The notes beneath the pieces are model-generated. The model was not told where the DNA came from and did no database searches. It worked only from the letters and a program-made list of their open reading frames with translations. Shown here piece by piece: positions 21,351-33,437 of a stretch of DNA of 64,000 nucleotides; position 1 is the stretch's first letter, and every line of letters starts with the position of its first letter. This DNA comes from Planctomycetota bacterium (GTDB taxonomy: Bacteria; Planctomycetota; Phycisphaerae; Phycisphaerales; UBA5793). The DNA lies in contig JABFGK010000001.1 in the NCBI GenBank assembly GCA_013112555.1, forward strand, positions 2,268,581 through 2,332,580, given 5' to 3'. The position numbers and the translations under genes are program-made.

Positions 21351-21449
21351 ATCAACCGCTACTCGCATGCCGCATGCATCCATGACCTGAAGGCTGCGCT
21401 CGATTGCTTGCCGGGCACACCTGCACGACCGGGCAGCGAATCGCAGGCC
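21351..21449 (+). pseudogene. Fossil 3' end of a tyrosine integrase
   Basis: Translated, this reads RYSHAACIHDLKAALDCLPG followed by TPARPGSESQAE. The intact integrase around its catalytic tyrosine reads RYSHARIHDLTAALDGLPG followed by VPTRPGTESQAE (33076-33167). One codon is inserted. The fossil runs directly into the left attachment repeat at 21450, so it is the right end of an older element at the same tRNA site. Confidence 0.8.
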
Positions 21450-21506
21450 GAAAAAAGAAACAGCCACCGTCCGGATTCGAACCGGAGACCTGCAGATTAC
21501 AAATCA
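21450..21506. repeat. Left attachment site (attL), tRNA-Thr 3'-half copy
   Basis: A perfect 57-bp copy of 33353-33409. It contains the antisense of the tRNA-Thr from the discriminator base to the anticodon loop. The tRNA 5' half is absent, so this copy is not a gene. It marks the left boundary of the element. Confidence 0.92.
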
Positions 21507-21709
21507 ATGGCTCGGAGTCCGCAAGCACTGAAACTACAGATACTTACGATGGCGACTCCGACAGCGCGCAGCGCATAGCGCAGCAGAGTCCGGAAAAACT
21601 GTTTGCTGACCACCCCGAGTTGCAAGACCTGTTCGATGGCTGGCCAGTATTGCCGGAAGCGGTCCGGGCGGGCATCATGGCGATGGTACAGGCCAGCAAG
21701 CCGGAGTGA
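21506..21709 (+). other. Orphan coding tail that completes the integrase in the excised form
   Basis: These 68 codons (stop included) are in frame with the 57-bp repeat exactly as the integrase is at the other end. The encoded 67 residues have an acidic Ser/Thr-rich linker and then a helical segment ending WPVLPEAVRAGIMAMVQA, which resembles the C-termini of planctomycete integrases as I know them. In the integrated state it lacks a start except a TTG at 21404 within the fossil. It is best explained as the displaced integrase C-terminus. Confidence 0.7.
21561..21586 (+). promoter_or_regulatory. Candidate integrase arm-binding site (left)
   Basis: The motif AGCGCA-TAGCGCAGC, with ACAGCGCGC before it, closely matches one at 33211-33237 in the same orientation. 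In the circular form the two would flank the attachment core at about 55 and 115 bases. They may be arm sites, or simply repeated coding sequence (AQRxAQ in both). Confidence 0.35.
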
Positions 21710-22673: not shown

Positions 22674-23108
22674 ATGGTAGAGAAGAGGTGTACCAGCAAG
22701 AAAAGACCGACGCGCGAGCGTAGGACCCTTTGCTACCCAAAGGACCTTCCGCAGCCGAGGGATTGGCTACGATTCGTCCACCTACCGCCATTTGACCCGG
22801 CATTCAAGAAATGCGGATTGGATGACGAGGACCTCAGGGCCCTTGAAATGCTGGTGATGGTCAATCCAGAGGGGCACCCTGTAATCACGGGCACTGGAGG
22901 AGTTCGCAAACTGCGATTCACTTCAAACCGGTGGTCGTCTGGAAAGCGCGGAGGAGCCAGGGTCTACTACCTGCATGTTGCCGAAAAAGGAATAGTGTTC
23001 TGGCTGTACATACACATGAAGAACGAACAGGACAATCTAACAGATGCTGGCAAGAAGGTTCTGAGAAGCCTTGTAGAAGAGGTGGTGGATTACTTGGAGA
23101 ATGGCTAG
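22674..23108 (+). CDS. RelE/HigB-type toxin
   Basis: This 144-residue protein has the HigB2/RelE-like pattern: LDDEDLRALEMLVMVNPEGHPVI, then GTGGVRKLRF, SGKRGGARVYYLHV, and the C-terminal DLTDAGKKVLRSLVEEVV. Family members are ribosome-dependent mRNA endonucleases. An extra basic N-terminus of about 30 residues precedes the domain, so a later start is possible though no better ribosome site is visible. The 3' end overlaps the antitoxin gene by eight bases. Toxin-first order is typical of hig-type loci. Confidence 0.82.
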   Translation: MVEKRCTSKKRPTRERRTLCYPKDLPQPRDWLRFVHLPPFDPAFKKCGLDDEDLRALEMLVMVNPEGHPVITGTGGVRKLRFTSNRWSSGKRGGARVYYLHVAEKGIVFWLYIHMKNEQDNLTDAGKKVLRSLVEEVVDYLENG

Positions 23109-23568
23109 TAGCCATGAGGGAGAGAGGCTTTTGTCAAAGGGCAGCGAACTAGGCGAACCTATGAATACCGACGACAACAACACCAAACCTGCGAAGGACG
23201 CCCGTGACGGCGCATCCCCAGTGGAGAGTGCGCTGATTGCTGGCCTCACGCACCTACGCGACACTCTGAAGCGAGGTGAGCGCCTTGAGAAACGATACAC
23301 AATGCGCACGGTCGACCTGAATCTTGAACCTCAAGACTATGATGCTGAACATGTCAGAAAGACGCGCGAGTTGCTGAGAGCCAGCCAAGCCGTATTTGCA
23401 AAACTGCTTGGCGTAAAGGCCAAGACCATTCAGTCCTGGGAGCAAGGTGTAGTTCCGCCTGCTATGGCCCGTAGACTGCTCGACTTGGTGAATGACAACC
23501 CCCAACAGTGGCTAGACATACTTCAACGTGCAGCCGAAGAAAAGACTACTCAGGAAAGCCAAACTTGA
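23101..23568 (+). CDS. HigA-type antitoxin, XRE helix-turn-helix
   Basis: The protein is 155 residues. The C-terminal half has a helix-turn-helix of the HigA2 type (VRKTRELLRASQAVFAKLLG followed by VKAKTIQSWEQG and PPAMARRLLDLV). The N-terminal part is charged and probably forms the toxin-binding region. An alternative start at 23161 would give 135 residues; the 23101 start overlaps the toxin stop. It probably neutralises the toxin and binds the operator at 22619-22639 (inference). Confidence 0.82.
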   Translation: MASSHEGERLLSKGSELGEPMNTDDNNTKPAKDARDGASPVESALIAGLTHLRDTLKRGERLEKRYTMRTVDLNLEPQDYDAEHVRKTRELLRASQAVFAKLLGVKAKTIQSWEQGVVPPAMARRLLDLVNDNPQQWLDILQRAAEEKTTQESQT

Positions 23569-23618
23569 TCTTGCCCATATGCACGCCAATCTAGCAACTG
23601 GCATTCTCCTTCATCAAG

Positions 23619-26600
23619 TCAATGGCCATGTGCACACAGCAGGTCATACGTATCAAGAATGTGTTCTGCCGTACTCACTTGGCCAAGCAGCGGGTTATTC
23701 TCGTGAATCCCCTTGAATGTGCTGAGTATGTACTCGGCATCATCTCGATCAATCCCGTACAACATAAAGAAAGCCGCGTCAAGTTCGGCCATCAGTTGCG
23801 CGCGATCTGCAGCATCCCACTTGTGCAACTGACCATTATACGCTTTCTTGAAACTACCTGTATTGAAATCACATGCCTCTGCCAATGGCAGCATATCCTC
23901 TGCCGTACAGGACAACTTCAGCACCCTCTCGCTGATCCATGTCACTAGATTTGTGCGCTTATGCCACTTGCACTTGGCTCCGTAGACATCTGGAGCAAAC
24001 ACCGGCAGTTGTTCAAGGATGAAGAAGTTGATATCTACATTGTGCACCTTTGGCCGCGTGAGAAAGTCAAATACGAACGCGTTCAGATTTGCCGCAAGGC
24101 ACAACTCAAGGCGAGGAGACACGCTCTCGTCCGGCTCAATCAAACACATAGAGTTCACGAATCCGACATCTGGCAACATTGAGGCAATCATCGTGCGTGT
24201 ATTCGTGGCACTGGTGACACGTTTGTATCCCAGCCAGTATCCCCTCTCGTCCACAACCTTCGCAACCTCATCATCCGCTATCCAGTATCGTGGCTGACAC
24301 AGCAACTCTGGATTCTGGTGAGCGGCTTCGGATGTTCCAATAGTCTGCCCCTGTCGGACCCAATTACCCTCCTCTGTCATCGCGCTTGCTGCCCGGTGAT
24401 CGTACATCTGGACCATCTTCGCCTCATACAATGGCAAGTACACGCGCTTTCTTCTGCTGTGAACAAACCAGTTGCCATCCAGTTTGTATCCTAACTTACC
24501 AACTTCGACAGCCTCTCTGAAAAGACCAGAGTCTGACGTTTGATTGAACAGTCCCTGCCTGAATCGAATACCCCACGGATTTCCCGTTTCACCCTTTCGG
24601 GATTTGTCGCACAGAATCGGCACCCTTCGGTATACATCCTGTGAAAGTCGCGCGTCCCGTCTGCTCCTAAATACTGGGCAAGTACAGGTGTTTGGATTCA
24701 GCAGCATCAAATCATCACTCGACAACGGCACGTGGCGCGCCCTGTCCTTTAGGTCTTCAATCCTGTGTACGAAAAACACAAAGTCAGCAGCAGCAGCCTG
24801 ATATGCCGCCCCACCAAAGTTGAGAATGCAAAACTTGAATCGCCCATCAACATCTGGAAAGAATCGCTTTGTTCTATTCTCGAAGTCGTACAGTCGAATT
24901 AGCCGGTCAGTACTGGCAATTGCTGTGAAGAAGTCCTTAGTAGTCAAATCAGAGGCGATACCTGATGGAGTCAACAATCCAACACGCCCATTTGCAGCCA
25001 CCAATTTCAAGGCCAATTCCGCAAATGCAGCGCATGTATTGGTCCTGCCCTTGCCTGTGAGAGGATACTCTCCGCTCTTATGGCAATAAGTACGCTGCGC
25101 GTCGATGCTACTCTTGACAGTCTCGAATCGCTGAAAGAGAGCGGGGTTATCCTTTTGCAGTGTGCTAACGAGTCTTCGTCGCTTGGCACCGGTTGTCGCA
25201 GTTGCGATTTCTGGTGCTGGGAGTGAGAAGAACTCTCTTTCAGACAGGTCCATTCGCTCCCACGGAGGGTTCCCTATCACACAATCAAAGCCACTCTCAT
25301 CTCTGTTGAATACCTCTGGAAAGCGCTCTCTCCAGTCGAAAGCAGCCTCATGCACAGTGACATCATGAACCAATGAATTACCGTGAACGATATTGTGCGA
25401 TAATGTCGCTAATGACTGTTGCTGAGTAGCAGACCGTACCCACAATGCAAGTTGGGTAATCTCTACGGCCTCAGGCGACAGATCCACTCCGTAGAGATTG
25501 CCATTCAGTATCCAGTGAGGCACATCTGCATGCAACTCACGTGCCCCTGACACTCCATGGCGCTCAAGGTGACCGATCACCTCAGAGTACCTTTGCTCAA
25601 GTGTGTTGTATGCCTGGAAGAGAAATGCACCTGAACCACACGCAGGATCGACTATTTTCAGGTTACGCAGAATGTCGAGGGCTGTAGACCAGTACTCTGC
25701 ATTGTCGTGGTTCTCTCCAAACGATTCGGACGCCTCATTAAACCGATGCTCTATCAGTTCCTCCACCGTGTATCGCACAATCAGGCTTGTGAGTTCCGGG
25801 GGTGTGTAATAGATGCCTAATCGCTTTCGCTTGGCAGATTGAGGCATTTCAGCGAACGCGCGGGCCTTGTCAGCACTTCCCCCAAACAAGCCGGACTGCT
25901 TCAGTTTCTCAAGTTCTGTAATTGACCGTTCAAACAGATGGCCAAGTACGTCAAGATTCACCTCATCGGCAAAGTCGTAGGAGCCGATTGTCTTGAAGAA
26001 ATTGGTCCACGGCTCATCTGGAAGTTCAATCTCATCCACGGCATGTGTTGCAAAGAGTCCACCGTTATAGGCAGGTATGCCATGATCCTCGCTGCCCGCA
26101 TCGACAAACCGAAATAATGCCTTAAAGTTCTGCCAGCGAGGATTCGTTACATTCGAGAATCCAGCAAGTTGACCGTGTGCACGTTCAATGGTCTTCTCAG
26201 ATAGGAGGCCACGATCTTCGCAGAACGCGATGAACATGACGCGATCAAAGAGGCGCTGAGCCATCTCTATGGCGTCGTCGAGAGAATAGCCCCGTTCGAT
26301 GTGAAGCAAGGCGATGAGATTGGTACGGTGTCTTGAGTACGACGCGTAGAGTTCATCCCCAACCGCACGCTGCCGATCATCAGTCTTCTTCAGCAACTCG
26401 ATAGCACGGGGCGGGTGATTCAGAATGCCTTCTATGAGGCCCTTGGGCCTGAAGAGAACATAGAACTGTCTGAAGATCCTCTTGTCACGCAGAGACTGTA
26501 GTGAGAAGTGCTCGTAGGCTCGGCGCGTAGAGTCTCTTTCATATAGCCTAAAACTGACAATGTTTGATACTACACCCCATCGGCAGTCCTTGGGCATATT

Positions 26601-27071
26601 GACCAGGTAGTCCCAACACTGCTCTATTGCCGTTCGGTTGTTGGAGCGGTCATGGTCAACGTGAACCGTCGGCCCCTTGAGTTCCACCACGGCAAGTGGT
26701 GTACCAGAATCGTTACCGTCATCGTCTGTGAAATGTCCTAGCACAGCATCAGGTGTTTGCATGCCAAAACTGCGGTGCTGTTCGAGATTCCACTCTTCGG
26801 CATTCTCCGCTGCACGGACGTAGCCAAGGGCCTGACCAAAGACTTCGTGTAGGAAATCCCCCTGTAGTTGAGTCTCTTTGAGTTTGAGCAGTCGGCCGGA
26901 GGTCTCAAAGTCCGCCCACTTGCAGAGTATGGCGTATGCCGCATCGGTCTCGGTATCGTCAAGTTGACGATCGTCGGCGGCTTCTCTCAAATAGCGCTCA
27001 AGTATGAGCCTGTCTGTCTTCGGCTGTCGCTCTGCCAGTGGGTTGTCGTTGAAGAGTCGCATATTGCTCAT
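23619..27071 (-). CDS. Type IIG restriction-modification enzyme (single chain, Eco57I-like)
   Basis: The protein is about 1150 residues. The N-terminal part has a PD-(D/E)xK-type nuclease pattern (TPDAVLGHF ... AVVELKGP, roughly residues 105-140). The central N6-adenine methyltransferase domain has motif I VDPACGSGAFLFQAY and motif IV CVIGNPPWERM. The C-terminal third is a target-recognition region (WIADDEVAK, FILEQLPV). One chain therefore cuts and methylates, a self-contained defence module. I chose the ATG at 27071 over 27119 because the extension (with CNCTEC) looks untranslated. It is convergent with the toxin-antitoxin pair and divergent from the unknown gene at 27304. The AT-richer composition than flanks points to recent transfer. 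It could also be a BREX-PglX-like methylase, but no other BREX genes are here. Confidence 0.85.
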   Translation of the reverse strand: MSNMRLFNDNPLAERQPKTDRLILERYLREAADDRQLDDTETDAAYAILCKWADFETSGRLLKLKETQLQGDFLHEVFGQALGYVRAAENAEEWNLEQHRSFGMQTPDAVLGHFTDDDGNDSGTPLAVVELKGPTVHVDHDRSNNRTAIEQCWDYLVNMPKDCRWGVVSNIVSFRLYERDSTRRAYEHFSLQSLRDKRIFRQFYVLFRPKGLIEGILNHPPRAIELLKKTDDRQRAVGDELYASYSRHRTNLIALLHIERGYSLDDAIEMAQRLFDRVMFIAFCEDRGLLSEKTIERAHGQLAGFSNVTNPRWQNFKALFRFVDAGSEDHGIPAYNGGLFATHAVDEIELPDEPWTNFFKTIGSYDFADEVNLDVLGHLFERSITELEKLKQSGLFGGSADKARAFAEMPQSAKRKRLGIYYTPPELTSLIVRYTVEELIEHRFNEASESFGENHDNAEYWSTALDILRNLKIVDPACGSGAFLFQAYNTLEQRYSEVIGHLERHGVSGARELHADVPHWILNGNLYGVDLSPEAVEITQLALWVRSATQQQSLATLSHNIVHGNSLVHDVTVHEAAFDWRERFPEVFNRDESGFDCVIGNPPWERMDLSEREFFSLPAPEIATATTGAKRRRLVSTLQKDNPALFQRFETVKSSIDAQRTYCHKSGEYPLTGKGRTNTCAAFAELALKLVAANGRVGLLTPSGIASDLTTKDFFTAIASTDRLIRLYDFENRTKRFFPDVDGRFKFCILNFGGAAYQAAAADFVFFVHRIEDLKDRARHVPLSSDDLMLLNPNTCTCPVFRSRRDARLSQDVYRRVPILCDKSRKGETGNPWGIRFRQGLFNQTSDSGLFREAVEVGKLGYKLDGNWFVHSRRKRVYLPLYEAKMVQMYDHRAASAMTEEGNWVRQGQTIGTSEAAHQNPELLCQPRYWIADDEVAKVVDERGYWLGYKRVTSATNTRTMIASMLPDVGFVNSMCLIEPDESVSPRLELCLAANLNAFVFDFLTRPKVHNVDINFFILEQLPVFAPDVYGAKCKWHKRTNLVTWISERVLKLSCTAEDMLPLAEACDFNTGSFKKAYNGQLHKWDAADRAQLMAELDAAFFMLYGIDRDDAEYILSTFKGIHENNPLLGQVSTAEHILDTYDLLCAHGH

Positions 27072-27303
27072 GTAGTGGCATTCGGTGCAGTTGCATGGGG
27101 CTACTGGGGTGAACCGCATCGGGGCGGGTCAGGGCAGGATTGTAGCACGTGTACGCACCAGTCATCGCCAGACACCAATACTGGACCGTATAATCCACCA
27201 GGAGGCCGGTAGGCCACCGGCTTTGCGGCATGGATCGGGGCGGCGGTTCGTACCTGTCCCGTGGTCCCGATCCTGCCGACCATCCGGAAGACAGGTAGAG
27301 CAC

Positions 27304-28935: not shown

Positions 28936-28980
28936 ATATCCGTGAGAATGCGTGAGCAAGCGTGAATGAGCGTGAGGGCA
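28931..28980. repeat. Five 10-bp direct repeats (iteron-like)
   Basis: CGTGA followed by A or G occurs at 28931, 28941, 28951, 28961 and 28971, exactly 10 bases apart, with variable filler. The consensus unit is CGTGARNNNS. The exact helical period places every copy on the same face of DNA. It is immediately upstream of the AlpA-like and primase-helicase genes. Candidate origin or cooperative operator. Confidence 0.75.
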
Positions 28981-29064
28981 GTTATTCCGGCCTTGCATGC
29001 TTTCATAGTGCTGTCATTATGCACGTGGCCGATGGTGGCCAATGCTGAAATGACAGGACTTACT

Positions 29065-29289
29065 ATGGCGAGCAAGCAACAAAGCGAACAACAGTTAATC
29101 ACTCTTCGACAAGCGGCCGAACTCTGCGGGGTAGGGAAACGCAGTTTCTGGCGGTACAGCAACTCCGGCCGGGCACCGCGACCCGTGCGACTGACGGCGC
29201 GATGCGTGCGCTGGCGACGGGCTGAAATCGAATCTTGGATCGAGCGCGGCTGCCCCGATCTGCGGACCGTGCCGAACAACAAGCACTGA
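29065..29289 (+). CDS. AlpA-like excisionase-family regulator
   Basis: The protein is 74 residues with a winged helix-turn-helix of the AlpA/HTH_17 type (LITLRQAAELCGVGKRSFWR followed by GRAPRPVRL and RWRRAEIESWIERG). AGGA lies seven bases before the ATG. A longer frame to 28966 would run through a hydrophobic stretch inside the repeat region and is unlikely. In satellites and prophages such proteins activate excision or early genes. Gene order (repeats, AlpA, primase-helicase) supports that role here. Confidence 0.85.
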   Translation: MASKQQSEQQLITLRQAAELCGVGKRSFWRYSNSGRAPRPVRLTARCVRWRRAEIESWIERGCPDLRTVPNNKH

Positions 29290-29353: not shown

Positions 29354-31519
29354 ATGTCAGCGATGAACCGCATTATAGAAGCGCTCCGTTCGCACGGCTG
29401 CGATCCGAAGCCGCGCGGCAGAGGGTACAGAGCGCGATGCCCTGCGCACGATGACCGCAATCCGAGTCTCGACGTGGACGAAGGCGATGAGGGTCGCGTG
29501 CTGATGACCTGTCGGGCCGGATGTGATAACAAACACATTGTCGCCAAAATCGGAAAGACAATGGCCGACCTGATGCCGGATCATCAGGGAGGAACGAGCG
29601 GCAACACCCGGAGGACGGCCACCAAAGCGAAGCGCCCATTCGATACGCTTGAAGCGGCCATCCAAGCCGGCGAGCGATCGACAAAGGGCACGCACGCTGC
29701 CACATACATATACAAAGCGCGGGAGGGTTCGGTTGTTGGCGCGGTGGTCCGGTTCGATCTGCCGACACCTGGGGGTGAGAAGCAGACTAAGACGTTTCGA
29801 CCGTTTCACTTTGTACAGGAAGGCTGGCGATTCGGCGACCCGCATGGGGGCTTCCCGCTATACCGGCTGCATTTACTTGCACGGGATGGCAGTAGGCGCG
29901 TTGACTTATTTGAGGGGGAGAAGTGCGCCGATGCAGCAGCCGAAATCGGCTTGAACTCCACGAGCATCGCGCACGGCGCGCGGGGCATCAAGACTACCGA
30001 CCTATCACCCCTGACAGAGCAAACTGTGTACCTGTGGCCAGACCATGACAAGGCTGGGGAAGCGTGGGCGCAGGAGTTGGCGGCGGCACTGAGGGACATC
30101 GGCTGCAAAGTCTACATTTGCCGTATACCCGGCCTTCCGGACAAGGGCGATATCGTGGACGCGCTCGGCGTTGATGGGCCGTGGCATGATCTGGACGCGG
30201 CGGAATGCCGGGAACTGATGGGAGCGATCGTAGAGGCTGCGCCTGTGTGGAGAGCACCCGAAGGCGCAAGGGATACCGCCAGATCAGCAGCAACTACCAC
30301 GGGTCTGGGACTGAGGGCAAAGCCGATGAGCGAGATCGAACCTGCACCGGTGATGTGGCTATGGCCAGACCGTATCCCACTTGCAAAGGTCTCCATCTTT
30401 GCGGGGGAGCCTGGGAAGAACAAAAGCACTATCGCGCTCGACATTGCGGCGCGTGTATCGACAGGCTGCGGCTGGCCAGACGCGCAGGGTGTGACATACG
30501 AACCCGGAAGCGTGCTGCTTATATCGGCAGAAGATGGAGCAGCGGACACGATTCGACCGCGACTCGATCTGGCGGGTGCCGACGTATCGCGAATCAAGTG
30601 GGTAGAGGGAACCGATGCAATCCCGCCATTCGACCCGGAGCAGGCAGTCAAGCCAGAACCCGAACTCAGGCCATTCGACATTTCGCAGGACATCGCAGAC
30701 CTGGAGCAGACCATCAGCAACACACCTAACTGTCGGCTCGTGTTACTTGACCCGATTGGTGCGTTCCTTGGCGACAGTACGAACTCGCACCGCGATGCCG
30801 ACGTTCGACGATTGCTACACCCGCTGTCCATGCTGGCCGAACGTACCGGCGTAGCGGTTGTGGCCATCATGCACTTTCGGAAGTCCGGCGGATCGGGCGT
30901 TCATGCAGTCCAAGGAAGCATTGCGTGGACGGCAGCGGCGCGTGCTGTCTGGGGCTTTATGGAGGACTTTGATAACCCGCACTTGGGCCGCCTGATGCTC
31001 CCGATGAAGATGAATCTGGCACGCGACACGAACGGCCTGGGCTGTCGAATAGAGAGCGGCGACAACGGTCATCCGTACATCGAGTGGTATCCGGTTCCGG
31101 TGGAAATGACCTATGACGAAGCAATGGCCGAAGCAGCACGGTTGCAAGCAGAGACCGAACGAAGAGCACCGGGGCCGGTACCGGAAGCGCTGAACACGGC
31201 GGTCTCGTGGCTGGAGGATGCCCTGGCCGATGGGCCACGACAGGTACGGGAGATAGAGGGAGTGGCCAAGACAGCAGGAATCAGCGAGGGCACCCTGAAG
31301 CGAGCACGGCGAAAACTCAACGTCATATCTGAACCCGGTGCCGGGCGCATCTATTGGATGCGAATGCCGGAGCAGGTGGAGCAGGATTCACCAGAACACG
31401 AACGACCTGCGCAACCTGCGCCATGTGATCTGTACACGACGTCGGAACCTGCGCCACCTGTCGCGGAAAACCCTACTAACGGCAGCGAAAGCAAAGGTGG
31501 ATCAGGTTGTACAAGTTAA
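29354..31519 (+). CDS. Primase-helicase (zinc finger, TOPRIM, RepA-like ATPase)
   Basis: The protein is 721 residues. A DnaG-type zinc finger lies at about 25-60 (ARCPAHDDRNPSL, MTCRAGC). A TOPRIM domain spans about 175-260, with LFEGEKCADAA and LWPDHDKAG. A RepA/DnaB-like hexameric ATPase follows from about 330, with Walker A G351-EPGKNKS358 and Walker B-like LVLLDPIGAFLGD. A winged-helix-like region (about 610-670) and a low-complexity tail end it. GGAG lies nine bases before the ATG. It should prime and unwind element DNA, consistent with autonomous replication after excision. Confidence 0.88.
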   Translation: MSAMNRIIEALRSHGCDPKPRGRGYRARCPAHDDRNPSLDVDEGDEGRVLMTCRAGCDNKHIVAKIGKTMADLMPDHQGGTSGNTRRTATKAKRPFDTLEAAIQAGERSTKGTHAATYIYKAREGSVVGAVVRFDLPTPGGEKQTKTFRPFHFVQEGWRFGDPHGGFPLYRLHLLARDGSRRVDLFEGEKCADAAAEIGLNSTSIAHGARGIKTTDLSPLTEQTVYLWPDHDKAGEAWAQELAAALRDIGCKVYICRIPGLPDKGDIVDALGVDGPWHDLDAAECRELMGAIVEAAPVWRAPEGARDTARSAATTTGLGLRAKPMSEIEPAPVMWLWPDRIPLAKVSIFAGEPGKNKSTIALDIAARVSTGCGWPDAQGVTYEPGSVLLISAEDGAADTIRPRLDLAGADVSRIKWVEGTDAIPPFDPEQAVKPEPELRPFDISQDIADLEQTISNTPNCRLVLLDPIGAFLGDSTNSHRDADVRRLLHPLSMLAERTGVAVVAIMHFRKSGGSGVHAVQGSIAWTAAARAVWGFMEDFDNPHLGRLMLPMKMNLARDTNGLGCRIESGDNGHPYIEWYPVPVEMTYDEAMAEAARLQAETERRAPGPVPEALNTAVSWLEDALADGPRQVREIEGVAKTAGISEGTLKRARRKLNVISEPGAGRIYWMRMPEQVEQDSPEHERPAQPAPCDLYTTSEPAPPVAENPTNGSESKGGSGCTS

Positions 31520-31743: not shown

Positions 31744-31968
31744 ATGACACAGATCGAGGAAACACTGATAGCGGCCATCGAATCGAGCGGGCAGAGCCGG
31801 TACAAGATCGCTCAAGGCAGCGGAGTGTCCGAAGGCGTCCTGAGCCGTTTCGTGAACCGGCAGCGCAGCATCACGATCGAGACGGCGGAGCGGCTGGCTG
31901 CGTACCTGGAACTGACCATCGACATTCACCCGGCCGGGAAGTCCGGCCGGAAGCGTAAGGGACGGTGA
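31744..31968 (+). CDS. XRE-family regulator next to the integrase
   Basis: The protein is 74 residues. A lambda-repressor-like helix-turn-helix fills it (SRYKIAQGSGVSEGVLSRFV followed by NRQRSITIETAERLAAYL), with a basic tail (GKSGRKRKGR). Its stop lies three bases before the integrase ATG, so the two are co-transcribed. It likely regulates integrase expression, as Cro/CI or Rpr-like regulators do. Confidence 0.88.
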   Translation: MTQIEETLIAAIESSGQSRYKIAQGSGVSEGVLSRFVNRQRSITIETAERLAAYLELTIDIHPAGKSGRKRKGR

Positions 31969-31971
31969 TCT

Positions 31972-33426
31972 ATGGCGAGCGTGTACCGACGAACAGGCAA
32001 GCGCGTCTATTCCGTGGCATGGATCGACGAAAACGGCAAGCGGGCTACGAAGGCCGCAGGCACCACCGACAAGCGGGCTGCACGAGAATTGGCACAGAAA
32101 CTCGAAGCCGATGCCATGCTCAGACGGCGGGGGATCATCGACTCCGGGGCTGAGCGCATGTCCAAGCAGGAGAGGCAGCCCATTGCCGACCACGTGGGAG
32201 CATATGAGACAGCACTGAAGGCCAAGGGCAATTGCAGAAAGCACATCAAGACCACTGTGCAGTACGTGCGTAAAGCACTGGAATCGTGCGCCTTCAAGTC
32301 GGCAGGCGATATCGAGCCATCGGCGGCCACTGCCTACATACGAACGCTGCAGGATTCCGGCCTGAGCACCCGAACCTGCAATGCTCGACTCCGGGCACTC
32401 AAATCGTTCACCCGCTGGCTGTGGCGCAATCGCAAGGTACGGGTCGATCCGCTTGTTTCGGTGTCGCTGGACGTTGCCGGAGAGCGCACAGGACGAAGGC
32501 TAGAGCGTAGGGCGTTTACCGATATTGAACTGAACTGGCTCATTCGAGCGGCTGCGCAGGGGAACACGTACCGGAAAATGTCCGGAGCGGATCGGGCCAT
32601 GATGTACCGGCTGGCGGTACAGACCGGCTTCAGGGTGTCCGAACTCGGATCGCTCAAGGTGTCGAGTTTCAACCTGGACGGCAATCCTCCGACAGTGACC
32701 ATACAGGCGGCCTACTCGAAAAGGCGCAGAACCGATGTGCAACCGATCCGGCCGGACTTTGCTGACGAACTGGCGGGCTGGCTGCAGGACAAGCCATCAG
32801 ACGGGCCGGTATTCCAGTTGCCCGGCAAGCCGCATGTCATGTTCAAGGCGGACCTGAGCCAAGCACGGGCCATGTGGATCACAGAGACAGACGATCAGGC
32901 CGAACGGAATCGGCGTGAGCAGTCAGACACTCTGCGGGCACTCGATTCGGCTGGCCGACGGCTTGACCTGCACGGCTTGCGGCACACGTTCATATCCCGA
33001 ATCGTACAGGGGGGTGCATCGGCAAGGACAGCGATGGAACTGGCCAGACACTCCACACCGACATTGACCATCGCCCGCTACTCGCACGCTCGAATCCACG
33101 ATCTGACGGCCGCACTTGACGGCCTGCCGGGAGTGCCGACACGACCGGGCACCGAATCACAGGCCGAACCCATGCGAGCGACAGGCACATCTGACGCTAC
33201 TTGTCATGTGACAGCGCAGCGCAAAGCGCAGCGCGCCCCGTACCAGACCCGGCCGGACCGGGCCGATACTGGCGCGTCGGACAACCTCCGGCTGAGCGGG
33301 GCAAACCACGATAGCACTCGTGAAAACAGCGGTTTTTCGCAGGATTCATGCGGAAAAAAGAAACAGCCACCGTCCGGATTCGAACCGGAGACCTGCAGAT
33401 TACAAATCAGCCGCTCTACCAACTGA
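31972..33426 (+). CDS. int: Tyrosine integrase whose 3' end crosses the attachment site
   Basis: This is a 484-residue recombinase in the integrated state. An Arm-type N-terminus is followed by a SAM-like core-binding domain (about 70-155), then the catalytic domain with R221 (TGFRVSEL), H334-G-L-R337 (HGLRHTF), H360 (ARHST) and nucleophile Y370 (ARYSH). After the tyrosine come about 100 low-complexity residues, and then the frame enters the 57-bp repeat (KKKQPPSGFEPETCRLQI). It ends five codons later inside the tRNA antisense. In the excised circle the frame would continue through 21506-21709, giving 546 residues. The start at 31972 follows the XRE gene by three bases. It catalyses integration into tRNA-Thr. 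Confidence 0.92.
   Translation: MASVYRRTGKRVYSVAWIDENGKRATKAAGTTDKRAARELAQKLEADAMLRRRGIIDSGAERMSKQERQPIADHVGAYETALKAKGNCRKHIKTTVQYVRKALESCAFKSAGDIEPSAATAYIRTLQDSGLSTRTCNARLRALKSFTRWLWRNRKVRVDPLVSVSLDVAGERTGRRLERRAFTDIELNWLIRAAAQGNTYRKMSGADRAMMYRLAVQTGFRVSELGSLKVSSFNLDGNPPTVTIQAAYSKRRRTDVQPIRPDFADELAGWLQDKPSDGPVFQLPGKPHVMFKADLSQARAMWITETDDQAERNRREQSDTLRALDSAGRRLDLHGLRHTFISRIVQGGASARTAMELARHSTPTLTIARYSHARIHDLTAALDGLPGVPTRPGTESQAEPMRATGTSDATCHVTAQRKAQRAPYQTRPDRADTGASDNLRLSGANHDSTRENSGFSQDSCGKKKQPPSGFEPETCRLQISRSTN
33211..33237 (+). promoter_or_regulatory. Candidate integrase arm-binding site (right)
   Basis: ACAGCGC-AGCGCAAAGCGCAG is itself a near-tandem repeat of GCGCAGCGCA. It matches 21561-21586 in the same orientation, 116 bases from the attachment repeat and inside the integrase coding region. 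Confidence 0.35.
33353..33409. repeat. Right attachment site (attR)
   Basis: A perfect 57-bp copy of 21450-21506. It overlaps the 3' half of the intact tRNA-Thr (through the anticodon loop) and 12 bases beyond the tRNA 3' end. It also encodes the end of the integrase on the opposite strand. Confidence 0.92.
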
Positions 33427-33437
33427 GCTACGGTGGC
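33365..33437 (-). tRNA. tRNA-Thr (anticodon TGT)
   Basis: The 73-nt cloverleaf has acceptor GCCACCG/CGGTGGC, D arm GCTC-AGTTGGTA-GAGC, anticodon loop TTTGTAA (anticodon TGT) and T arm TCCGG-TTCGAAT-CCGGA. CCA is not encoded. The anticodon stem GCTGA/TCTGC has a central T-T mismatch. The 3' half lies inside the attachment repeat, so the gene is a chimera of chromosomal 5' half and element-supplied 3' half. Confidence 0.93.

What the first reader, a model, noticed from the sequence alone, without database searches (positions are those of the whole stretch)
31972..33426. Integrase gene crosses its attachment site, so integration would replace a 67-residue C-terminal tail
Seen: the integrase frame runs through the 57-bp repeat and ends five codons later (SRSTN) in the tRNA antisense. 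The left copy of the repeat is in the same reading frame and continues for 67 codons (21506-21709) to a stop. In the excised circle the two would join into a 546-residue integrase whose tail ends in a helical region with WPVLPEAVRAGI. In the integrated state the same gene makes 484 residues. Known: attachment sites inside integrase genes occur, for example in SSV-type archaeal viruses. Inference: here the swap changes only a C-terminal module and could bias the enzyme towards integration or excision.
Basis: partly seen in the sequence, partly recalled or inferred. Interest (0 to 1): 0.87.

Follow-up and report, generated by a model that had tools for sequence, protein, structure and literature searches.

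The report
Integrase that swaps its own tail
In this bacterial mobile element the DNA site predicted to be used for insertion into the chromosome lies inside the integrase gene itself, so insertion would replace the enzyme's conserved tail by a few residues read from a tRNA gene, which likely lets the enzyme work differently in its free and its inserted state.

Summary
In detail: a 484-codon integrase ORF runs through a 57-bp repeat into tRNA-Thr, and the left copy of that repeat opens in the same frame into 67 more codons. It is not a one-off. In 38 elements whose integrase crosses its repeat, the left copy reads in the integrase frame into the same C-terminal module (W-P-x-L-P...) in 33 (23 of 27 in a first set, 10 of 11 held out), at twelve tRNA isotypes. 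In 7 elements whose integrase stops before the repeat, none does in that frame. In 21 of 37 elements the coding DNA on both sides of the core shares direct repeats, mostly 12-bp tandem pairs that look like integrase arm sites. A 43-kb phage contig without a detected tRNA gene carries the uninterrupted tailed integrase. AlphaFold of a tailed homolog shows a disordered linker followed by a two-helix tail. So attP, putative arms included, appears to be coding sequence, and integration would strip the tail. attP inside int with a changed C-terminus is known for Myxococcus phage Mx8; a tail conserved across a bacterial phylum was not found in my literature searches. That the tail favours integration is inferred, not shown.

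The parts
31972..33426 (+). integrase ORF in the integrated state, 484 codons, tyrosine recombinase; ends inside the tRNA gene
   Evidence: Pfam PF00589 1.5e-13 and PF02899; PHROG integrase 9.8e-35; ORF
33353..33409 (+). right copy of the 57-bp repeat (core, attR side), covering the 3' part of tRNA-Thr, inside the integrase frame
21450..21506 (+). left copy of the 57-bp repeat (core, attL side)
21506..21709 (+). tail codons in the integrase frame, 67 aa plus stop; conserved module PELQDLFDGWPVLPEAVRAGIMAMVQ near the end
   Evidence: module HMM
33214..33232 (+). putative P-arm repeat pair (GCGCAGCGCAAAGCGCAGC), 120 bp before the core, coding AQRKAQR
   Evidence: function inferred
21566..21584 (+). 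putative P'-arm repeat pair (GCGCAGCGCATAGCGCAGC), 59 bp after the core, coding AQRIAQ
   Evidence: function inferred
33365..33437 (-). tRNA-Thr(TGT), intact, the target gene
   Evidence: ARAGORN
31747..31968 (+). 73-aa HTH protein directly before the integrase, possible regulator
   Evidence: Pfam HTH_3 1e-6
28966..29289 (+). AlpA-type protein, candidate directionality factor
   Evidence: Pfam AlpA 1.2e-7; PHROG excisionase and transcriptional regulator 1.4e-12
29354..31519 (+). primase/helicase-like protein of the element
   Evidence: PHROG 7.7e-35
21351..21452 (+). remnant of another integrase C-terminus, in a different frame from the core reading; likely left by an earlier element at the same tRNA

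Best explanation
The integrase gene contains its own predicted attachment site, so integration would replace the enzyme's conserved C-terminal module by five residues read from the tRNA gene, and the tailed form is likely the one that acts while the element is free. In detail: the coding sequence after the catalytic domain holds putative P-arm repeats, the 57-bp core, putative P'-arm repeats and then a conserved module predicted to be two helices. In the circle (inferred) all this would be one ORF of 546 codons. Recombination at the core (inferred) would leave the tail codons at the left end of the element and join the integrase frame to the tRNA antisense, giving 484 residues with the whole catalytic domain. 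A lone integrated element would then not encode a tailed enzyme, so the selection that has kept the tail most likely acts in the free (or tandem) state. The mechanism I commit to: the tail helps the integrative reaction, and its loss leaves an enzyme that does not re-integrate well and works in excision with a directionality factor. That last step is inferred.
For: Layout in the window. In-frame tail module in 33 of 38 crossing elements, 10 of 11 in the held-out set, 0 of 7 where the integrase stops before the repeat (Fisher p 1.7e-5, held-out set alone 0.011, not corrected for relatedness). Frame open for 50 or more codons past the core in 35, 6 and 1 of 38 for the three frames. Tail HMM: 48 hits below E 0.01 in 54,600 ORFs, next 0.27. 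Codon positions 1, 2, 3 differ at 0.38, 0.24, 0.62 in 56 module pairs. Shared direct repeats before and after the core in 21 of 37, against 1 of 296 mismatched pairs. Uninterrupted tailed integrase on phage contig L132, no tRNA detected there. Relatives that stop exactly at the core peptide beside one that has the tail (P0008, P0019, P0006). AlphaFold of P0014: linker 449-548 disordered, tail helices 551-559 and 566-579.
Against: No recombination, circle or expression was observed. Five of 38 crossing elements lack the module in frame: L045 has a different 79-codon extension, L062 51 codons without the motif, L072 13 codons, L096b none (its repeat is that of a tandem neighbour), L170 29 codons with masked bases. 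Some family members do without a tail: 24 of 224 homologs with an ATGT-like motif end within 30 residues of it, and only 1 of 11 viral integrase ORFs has the tail. Sixteen of 37 elements show no strong shared repeat. The direction of the effect is a guess from logic.
Confidence: 0.6

Rival explanations
1. The tail is an instability signal: the free element makes a short-lived integrase, and integration removes the signal and yields a stable one, as the C-terminal tag does for the mycobacteriophage BPs repressor.
For: [quoted passage not shown] The tail sits at the very end of the protein and is hydrophobic.
Against: 0 of 33 tails end in an ssrA-like pair of A, V or L with an A; the last four residues vary, whereas the conserved part lies upstream and is predicted to fold. 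Degrons of other kinds are not excluded.
Confidence: 0.15
2. The overlap is compaction only: attP was swallowed by the 3' end of the gene, the tail is a structural end piece, and losing it has no effect on activity.
For: Some family members end before the core and lack a tail, so the body can persist without it; Mx8 attP in int shows that such overlaps arise.
Against: The module is kept in 33 of 38 crossing elements whose integrases average 37% identity, with a codon-position pattern of protein selection.
Confidence: 0.17
3. The left-end ORF is a separate small gene that is expressed in the integrated state, and the shared frame is secondary.
For: 25 of 33 tails have an in-frame ATG, GTG or TTG between core and module.
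Against: Only 11 of 33 have an ATG there and 8 have none of the three. A separate gene would not need the integrase frame, yet the frame agrees in 33 of 38.
Confidence: 0.05

Closest known systems
Myxococcus phage Mx8 integrase (int; Mx9 described as similar in principle)
   Same: attP lies within int; integration makes a new 3' end and an enzyme that stays active but with changed specificity (PMC6070905 passage); a small excisionase gene, Uoi, starts just before int and overlaps it.
   Different: Mx8 Int matches the window integrase weakly (21% over 292 alignment columns, E 1e-4 in a single comparison) and has no match to the tail module (best E 0.4, at residues 147-158). Described for single phages; here a tail module is conserved in many elements of one phylum.
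Archaeal suicidal integrases (SSV, pTN3, pT26-2)
   Same: attachment site within the integrase gene (PMC8371274 passages)
   Different: There integration splits the gene into two inactive parts; here the catalytic domain is not split. [quoted passage not shown]
Integration-dependent immunity of mycobacteriophage BPs and its relatives
   Same: attP inside a gene; integration shortens the product at its C-terminus (PMC4557955 abstract)
   Different: The gene there is the repressor and the lost part is a degradation tag; here the gene is the integrase and the lost part is predicted to fold.
Lambda-type integrases
   Same: Fold of the body: Foldseek matches to lambda integrase (1z1b_B, TM by target 0.61), to Tn1549 and, first in rank, phage Brujita integrase; putative arm repeats on both sides of the core.
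   Different: Lambda attP lies outside the int coding sequence (recalled); here core and putative arms are coding.

Membership tests
Tyrosine recombinase / phage integrase | catalytic domain above the curated cut-off | tested here: met
   PF00589 51.3 bits against a cut-off of 27.1
Tyrosine recombinase / phage integrase | strand exchange at the att core | not testable with these tools
   only the repeat at both ends of the element is seen
Archaeal suicidal integrase (SSV type) | attachment site within the integrase gene | tested here: met
   the repeat lies in frame within the ORF
Archaeal suicidal integrase (SSV type) | integration splits off the catalytic part | tested here: not met
   catalytic match at residues 202-373 of 484, well before the core
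Mx8-type integrase (attP in int, C-terminus exchanged) | attP in the int coding sequence and an int frame that goes on past the core at the other end | tested here: met
   window and 33 of 38 elements with the module in frame
Mx8-type integrase (attP in int, C-terminus exchanged) | both forms active, with different specificity | not testable with these tools
   no activity data here; for Mx8 from the review passage
Mx8-type integrase (attP in int, C-terminus exchanged) | close sequence relationship and the same tail | tested here: not met
   21% over part of the sequence; no tail module in Mx8 Int
Integration-dependent immunity (BPs type) | attP lies in the repressor gene | tested here: not met
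   the crossed gene is the integrase
Lambda-like attP | arm-type sites on both sides of the core | tested here: inconclusive
   shared direct repeats in 21 of 37 elements, the window included; binding not tested

The most novel reading that the evidence does not exclude
A bacterial phylum-wide integrase family writes its whole attP, arms included, into a disordered stretch of its own coding sequence and uses recombination as a covalent switch: the tailed enzyme integrates, the act of integration cuts the integration module off the gene, and excision puts it back, so the enzyme itself remembers the state of the element.
Probability: 0.4. Interest if true: 0.87.

Novelty: new variant of a known kind. 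Interest (0 to 1): 0.76.

Why it matters
Directionality of tyrosine integrases is usually put down to a separate factor. Here the gene itself would be rewritten by the reaction, and sequence records hold dozens of matched pairs (tail codons at one end of the element, enzyme at the other) at twelve tRNA isotypes. That makes the question directly testable: add or remove one small module and measure both reactions. It also gives an annotation rule: an integrase of this family that ends in a tRNA-antisense peptide has likely left its tail at the other end, so the tail ORF helps to mark the far end of the island. And it carries attP-inside-int in bacteria from the Mx8 and Mx9 phages to a widespread family with a conserved tail.

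Tried and rejected
Coincidence of frames: rejected by the frame control (35, 6 and 1 of 38 open for at least 50 codons). Tail as a chance ORF: rejected by the HMM gap (48 hits below E 0.01, next 0.27, in 54,600 ORFs) and by the held-out set. Of those 48 hits, 23 are training tails and some are duplicates; six lie where I did not explain them (two in L086, one each in L087, L163, L220, and a second one in L082) and one is at a contig edge (L159).

SSV-type suicide: rejected, the catalytic domain is not split. Known tail domain: Pfam found nothing in the left ORF; a three-sequence tail profile against PDB sequences gave three short matches (best E 0.0028 over 14 residues, taken as chance). Named phages and plasmids: tblastn of P0014 at 1e-20 found none in either. 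The first genome-contig scan with the single window protein found no relative; the alignment-based scan found 255 relatives and kept 80.

No attL was found, although one or two further stretches upstream were read, for L052, L067, L070, L086, L087 and L088 (integrase crosses a tRNA) and for L066, L073, L074 and L096. L082 shows the tail in frame by hand but has no tRNA call and is outside the 38; L188 likewise shares a 15-residue core peptide with a tail ORF but has no tRNA call and is not counted. L132 could not be shown to be circular: the tool gave no end class for it. L040, the second integrase of this genome, has three stops inside and counts as stop-before-core; it was only described. 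In the arm test L048 was dropped (linker under 60 bases) and the best tandem period (9-15 bp) was not tested against a null.

Papers: nine searches. None of the 20 listed of 39 papers held 'planctomycet'; (Planctomycetota, prophage, integrase, attP) found no paper; I saw no description of this family in the listings. This covers open-licence PMC text only; one paper listed (PMC8115907) was not opened. A crude count of tRNA-like peptide endings (131 of 197) is not relied on.

Full report
The observation. The integrase ORF 31972-33426 (+) has 484 codons and ends five codons after an exact 57-bp repeat, inside tRNA-Thr(TGT) at 33365-33437 on the minus strand. The other copy lies 11,903 bp to the left, at 21450-21506, and reads in the integrase frame for 67 more codons to the stop at 21707-21709. 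The intact tRNA is on the right and the repeat covers its 3' part, the usual picture of an element in the 3' end of a tRNA gene. In the excised circle the two halves would join as a 546-codon integrase.

The element. It is about 11.9 kb long. It carries an Eco57I-type restriction-methylase protein (23619-27119), a weakly RelE-like plus HTH pair (22674-23568; below Pfam's cut-offs), an AlpA-type excisionase/regulator (28966-29289), a primase/helicase-like protein (29354-31519) and a small HTH gene just before the integrase. No capsid or terminase match came up among the proteins tested (ten, eight). The genome has two contigs. Its kin are planctomycetes: the integrase DNA of a same-family genome (G372) matches Planctomycetota isolate KLAP200, and that of a same-order genome (G384) a Phycisphaerae MAG.

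Is it general? A search of 392 genomes of the phylum gave 72 places in 51 genomes at E 1e-40. I fetched 57 stretches around such places and 3 around weaker matches of the own genome, which gave no hit at 1e-20, and extended 20 of them upstream. A second, held-out set is the best 80 of 255 loci in named genomes; 13 viral loci came. After removing 10 duplicates there were 141 integrase loci: 59 in set A (with the window), 71 in set B, 11 viral. Of these, 117 have a tRNA within 800 bp and 45 a recognisable second repeat copy (31 in A, 14 in B); for the others the copy was not found, often because the contig or the flank ends. Of 114 integrase ORFs with such a tRNA and a stop, 101 read at least 15 bases into the tRNA.

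Among the 45, 38 integrases cross the repeat (frame open at least 21 bases into it). The left copy opens in the same frame into the module in 33: 23 of 27 in A and 10 of 11 in B (L192 and L198 by HMM). The exceptions are L045, L062, L072, L096b and L170. The 33 follow Ser 8, Lys 4, Met 4, Arg 4, Thr 3, Leu 3, Cys 2 and Glu, Gly, Tyr, Val and Asn 1 each. Two of them, L065 and L193, enter a tRNA gene in the sense direction and still show the module. In the seven elements whose integrase stops before the repeat (L040, L077, L078, L085, L171, L179, L217) the module is never in the integrase frame; in L085 it is in the +1 frame. The 33 integrases are 24-71% identical (mean 37%). The counts are not corrected for relatedness, and the A tails were used to define the motif, so B is the fair test.

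The module. Consensus roughly xDLxxIVxAWPxLPExIRxAIxAMV; L at -7 in 30 of 33, P at +4 in 27, R at +8 and I at +11 in 24 each (W and L at +3 are fixed by the pattern). Among 56 pairs at least 50% alike the differences are 0.38, 0.24 and 0.62 at codon positions 1, 2 and 3, as expected of a translated sequence. Tail similarity follows integrase similarity only weakly (r 0.27; 12 of 5000 permutations reach it). P0006 and P0188 carry nearly the same tail on integrases 46% alike, so tails may also be exchanged.

attP as coding sequence. Comparing the linker DNA before the core with the DNA after it, 21 of 37 elements share a direct repeat of score 13 or more, against 1 of 296 mismatched pairs; for inverted repeats it is 1 of 37 (L048 was dropped for a short linker). 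In the 21 the shared piece lies 96-174 bp before the core in 19 and 32-60 bp after it in 16, and the linker copy is a tandem pair of 12-bp period in 16. In the window these are 33214-33232 and 21566-21584. I read them as arm-type sites; that is inference.

Free forms. In the viral contig L132 integrase and tail are one ORF of 573 codons in the middle of 43,208 bases that also hold a terminase; no tRNA was found on the whole record, while all 14 control genomes rang. Of 11 viral integrase ORFs it is the only one with the tail; several others end soon after the catalytic domain. The same protein is listed with two contigs, the longest 43,793 bases (P0200). Of 283 homologous proteins (the best 120 listed in each of three searches), 9 have the tail. 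P0006 has it, while its 73-80% relatives P0008 and P0019 stop exactly at the core peptide. In L059 an upstream integrase remnant reads into the tail of the next element.

Structure. AlphaFold of P0014, a natural tailed homolog and not the window protein, gives mean pLDDT 82 and pTM 0.66. Residues 449-548 are below 50; the tail forms helices 551-559 and 566-579 with block values of 75-86. The body matches integrases of phage Brujita, lambda and Tn1549 among others. So the predicted recombination site would be written in a linker that tolerates many peptides, and the module hangs behind it.

Mechanism. Shown: the layout, its conservation, the shared repeats, the uninterrupted phage form. Inferred: circle formation and expression in this host, arm function, and the effect of the tail. 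The argument for a free-state role is that a lone integrated element would not encode the tailed enzyme, yet the tail is conserved. I favour a role in the integrative reaction over a degron (variable end residues; predicted folded module) and over mere compaction, which the tail-less members of the family keep alive.

What is known. A review passage says that Mx8 attP lies within int and that integration creates a new 3' end that does not inactivate the enzyme but modifies its specificity (PMC6070905). The Islander paper notes that some integrases, such as those of Mx8 and SSV, extend across attP (PMC4383910 passage). [quoted passage not shown] BPs uses the trick on its repressor (PMC4557955 abstract). 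So the kind is known; the conserved tail, the coding arm-like repeats and the spread over a phylum I did not see in nine paper searches.

Noticed in passing
window 21351-21452: Remnant of another integrase C-terminus directly left of the left repeat, 76-85% like the window integrase at DNA level but without the linker: likely a trace of an earlier element at the same tRNA.
   Followed up: partly
L002, L003, L005, L007 (own genome): Further integrase genes or pieces lie beside other tRNA genes of the same genome (Arg, Gln, Gly, Thr-CGT); the Arg one has three stops inside.
   Followed up: partly
P0006 and P0188: Two integrases 46% alike carry nearly the same tail after different core peptides, which suggests that tails can be exchanged between elements.
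   Followed up: no
L045, left repeat copy: A crossing integrase whose left copy opens in frame into 79 codons of a different sequence (LPADLEGALAALPSEEREAVFEHV...): perhaps a second kind of tail.
   Followed up: no
L085, L151, L213, L218: The tail module is present but out of frame with the integrase as read, so these genes are perhaps frameshifted; left as they are.
   Followed up: no
window 22674-27119: Cargo of the element: a RelE-like plus HTH pair and an Eco57I-type restriction-methylase protein, as in many defence-bearing islands.
   Followed up: no
L059 and L096: Two integrases in a row, one of each pair beside a tRNA; in L059 an upstream integrase remnant reads into the tail of the downstream element.
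   Followed up: partly
L197: One relative lies in a MAG named Alphaproteobacteria; true transfer or misbinning was not examined.
   Followed up: no
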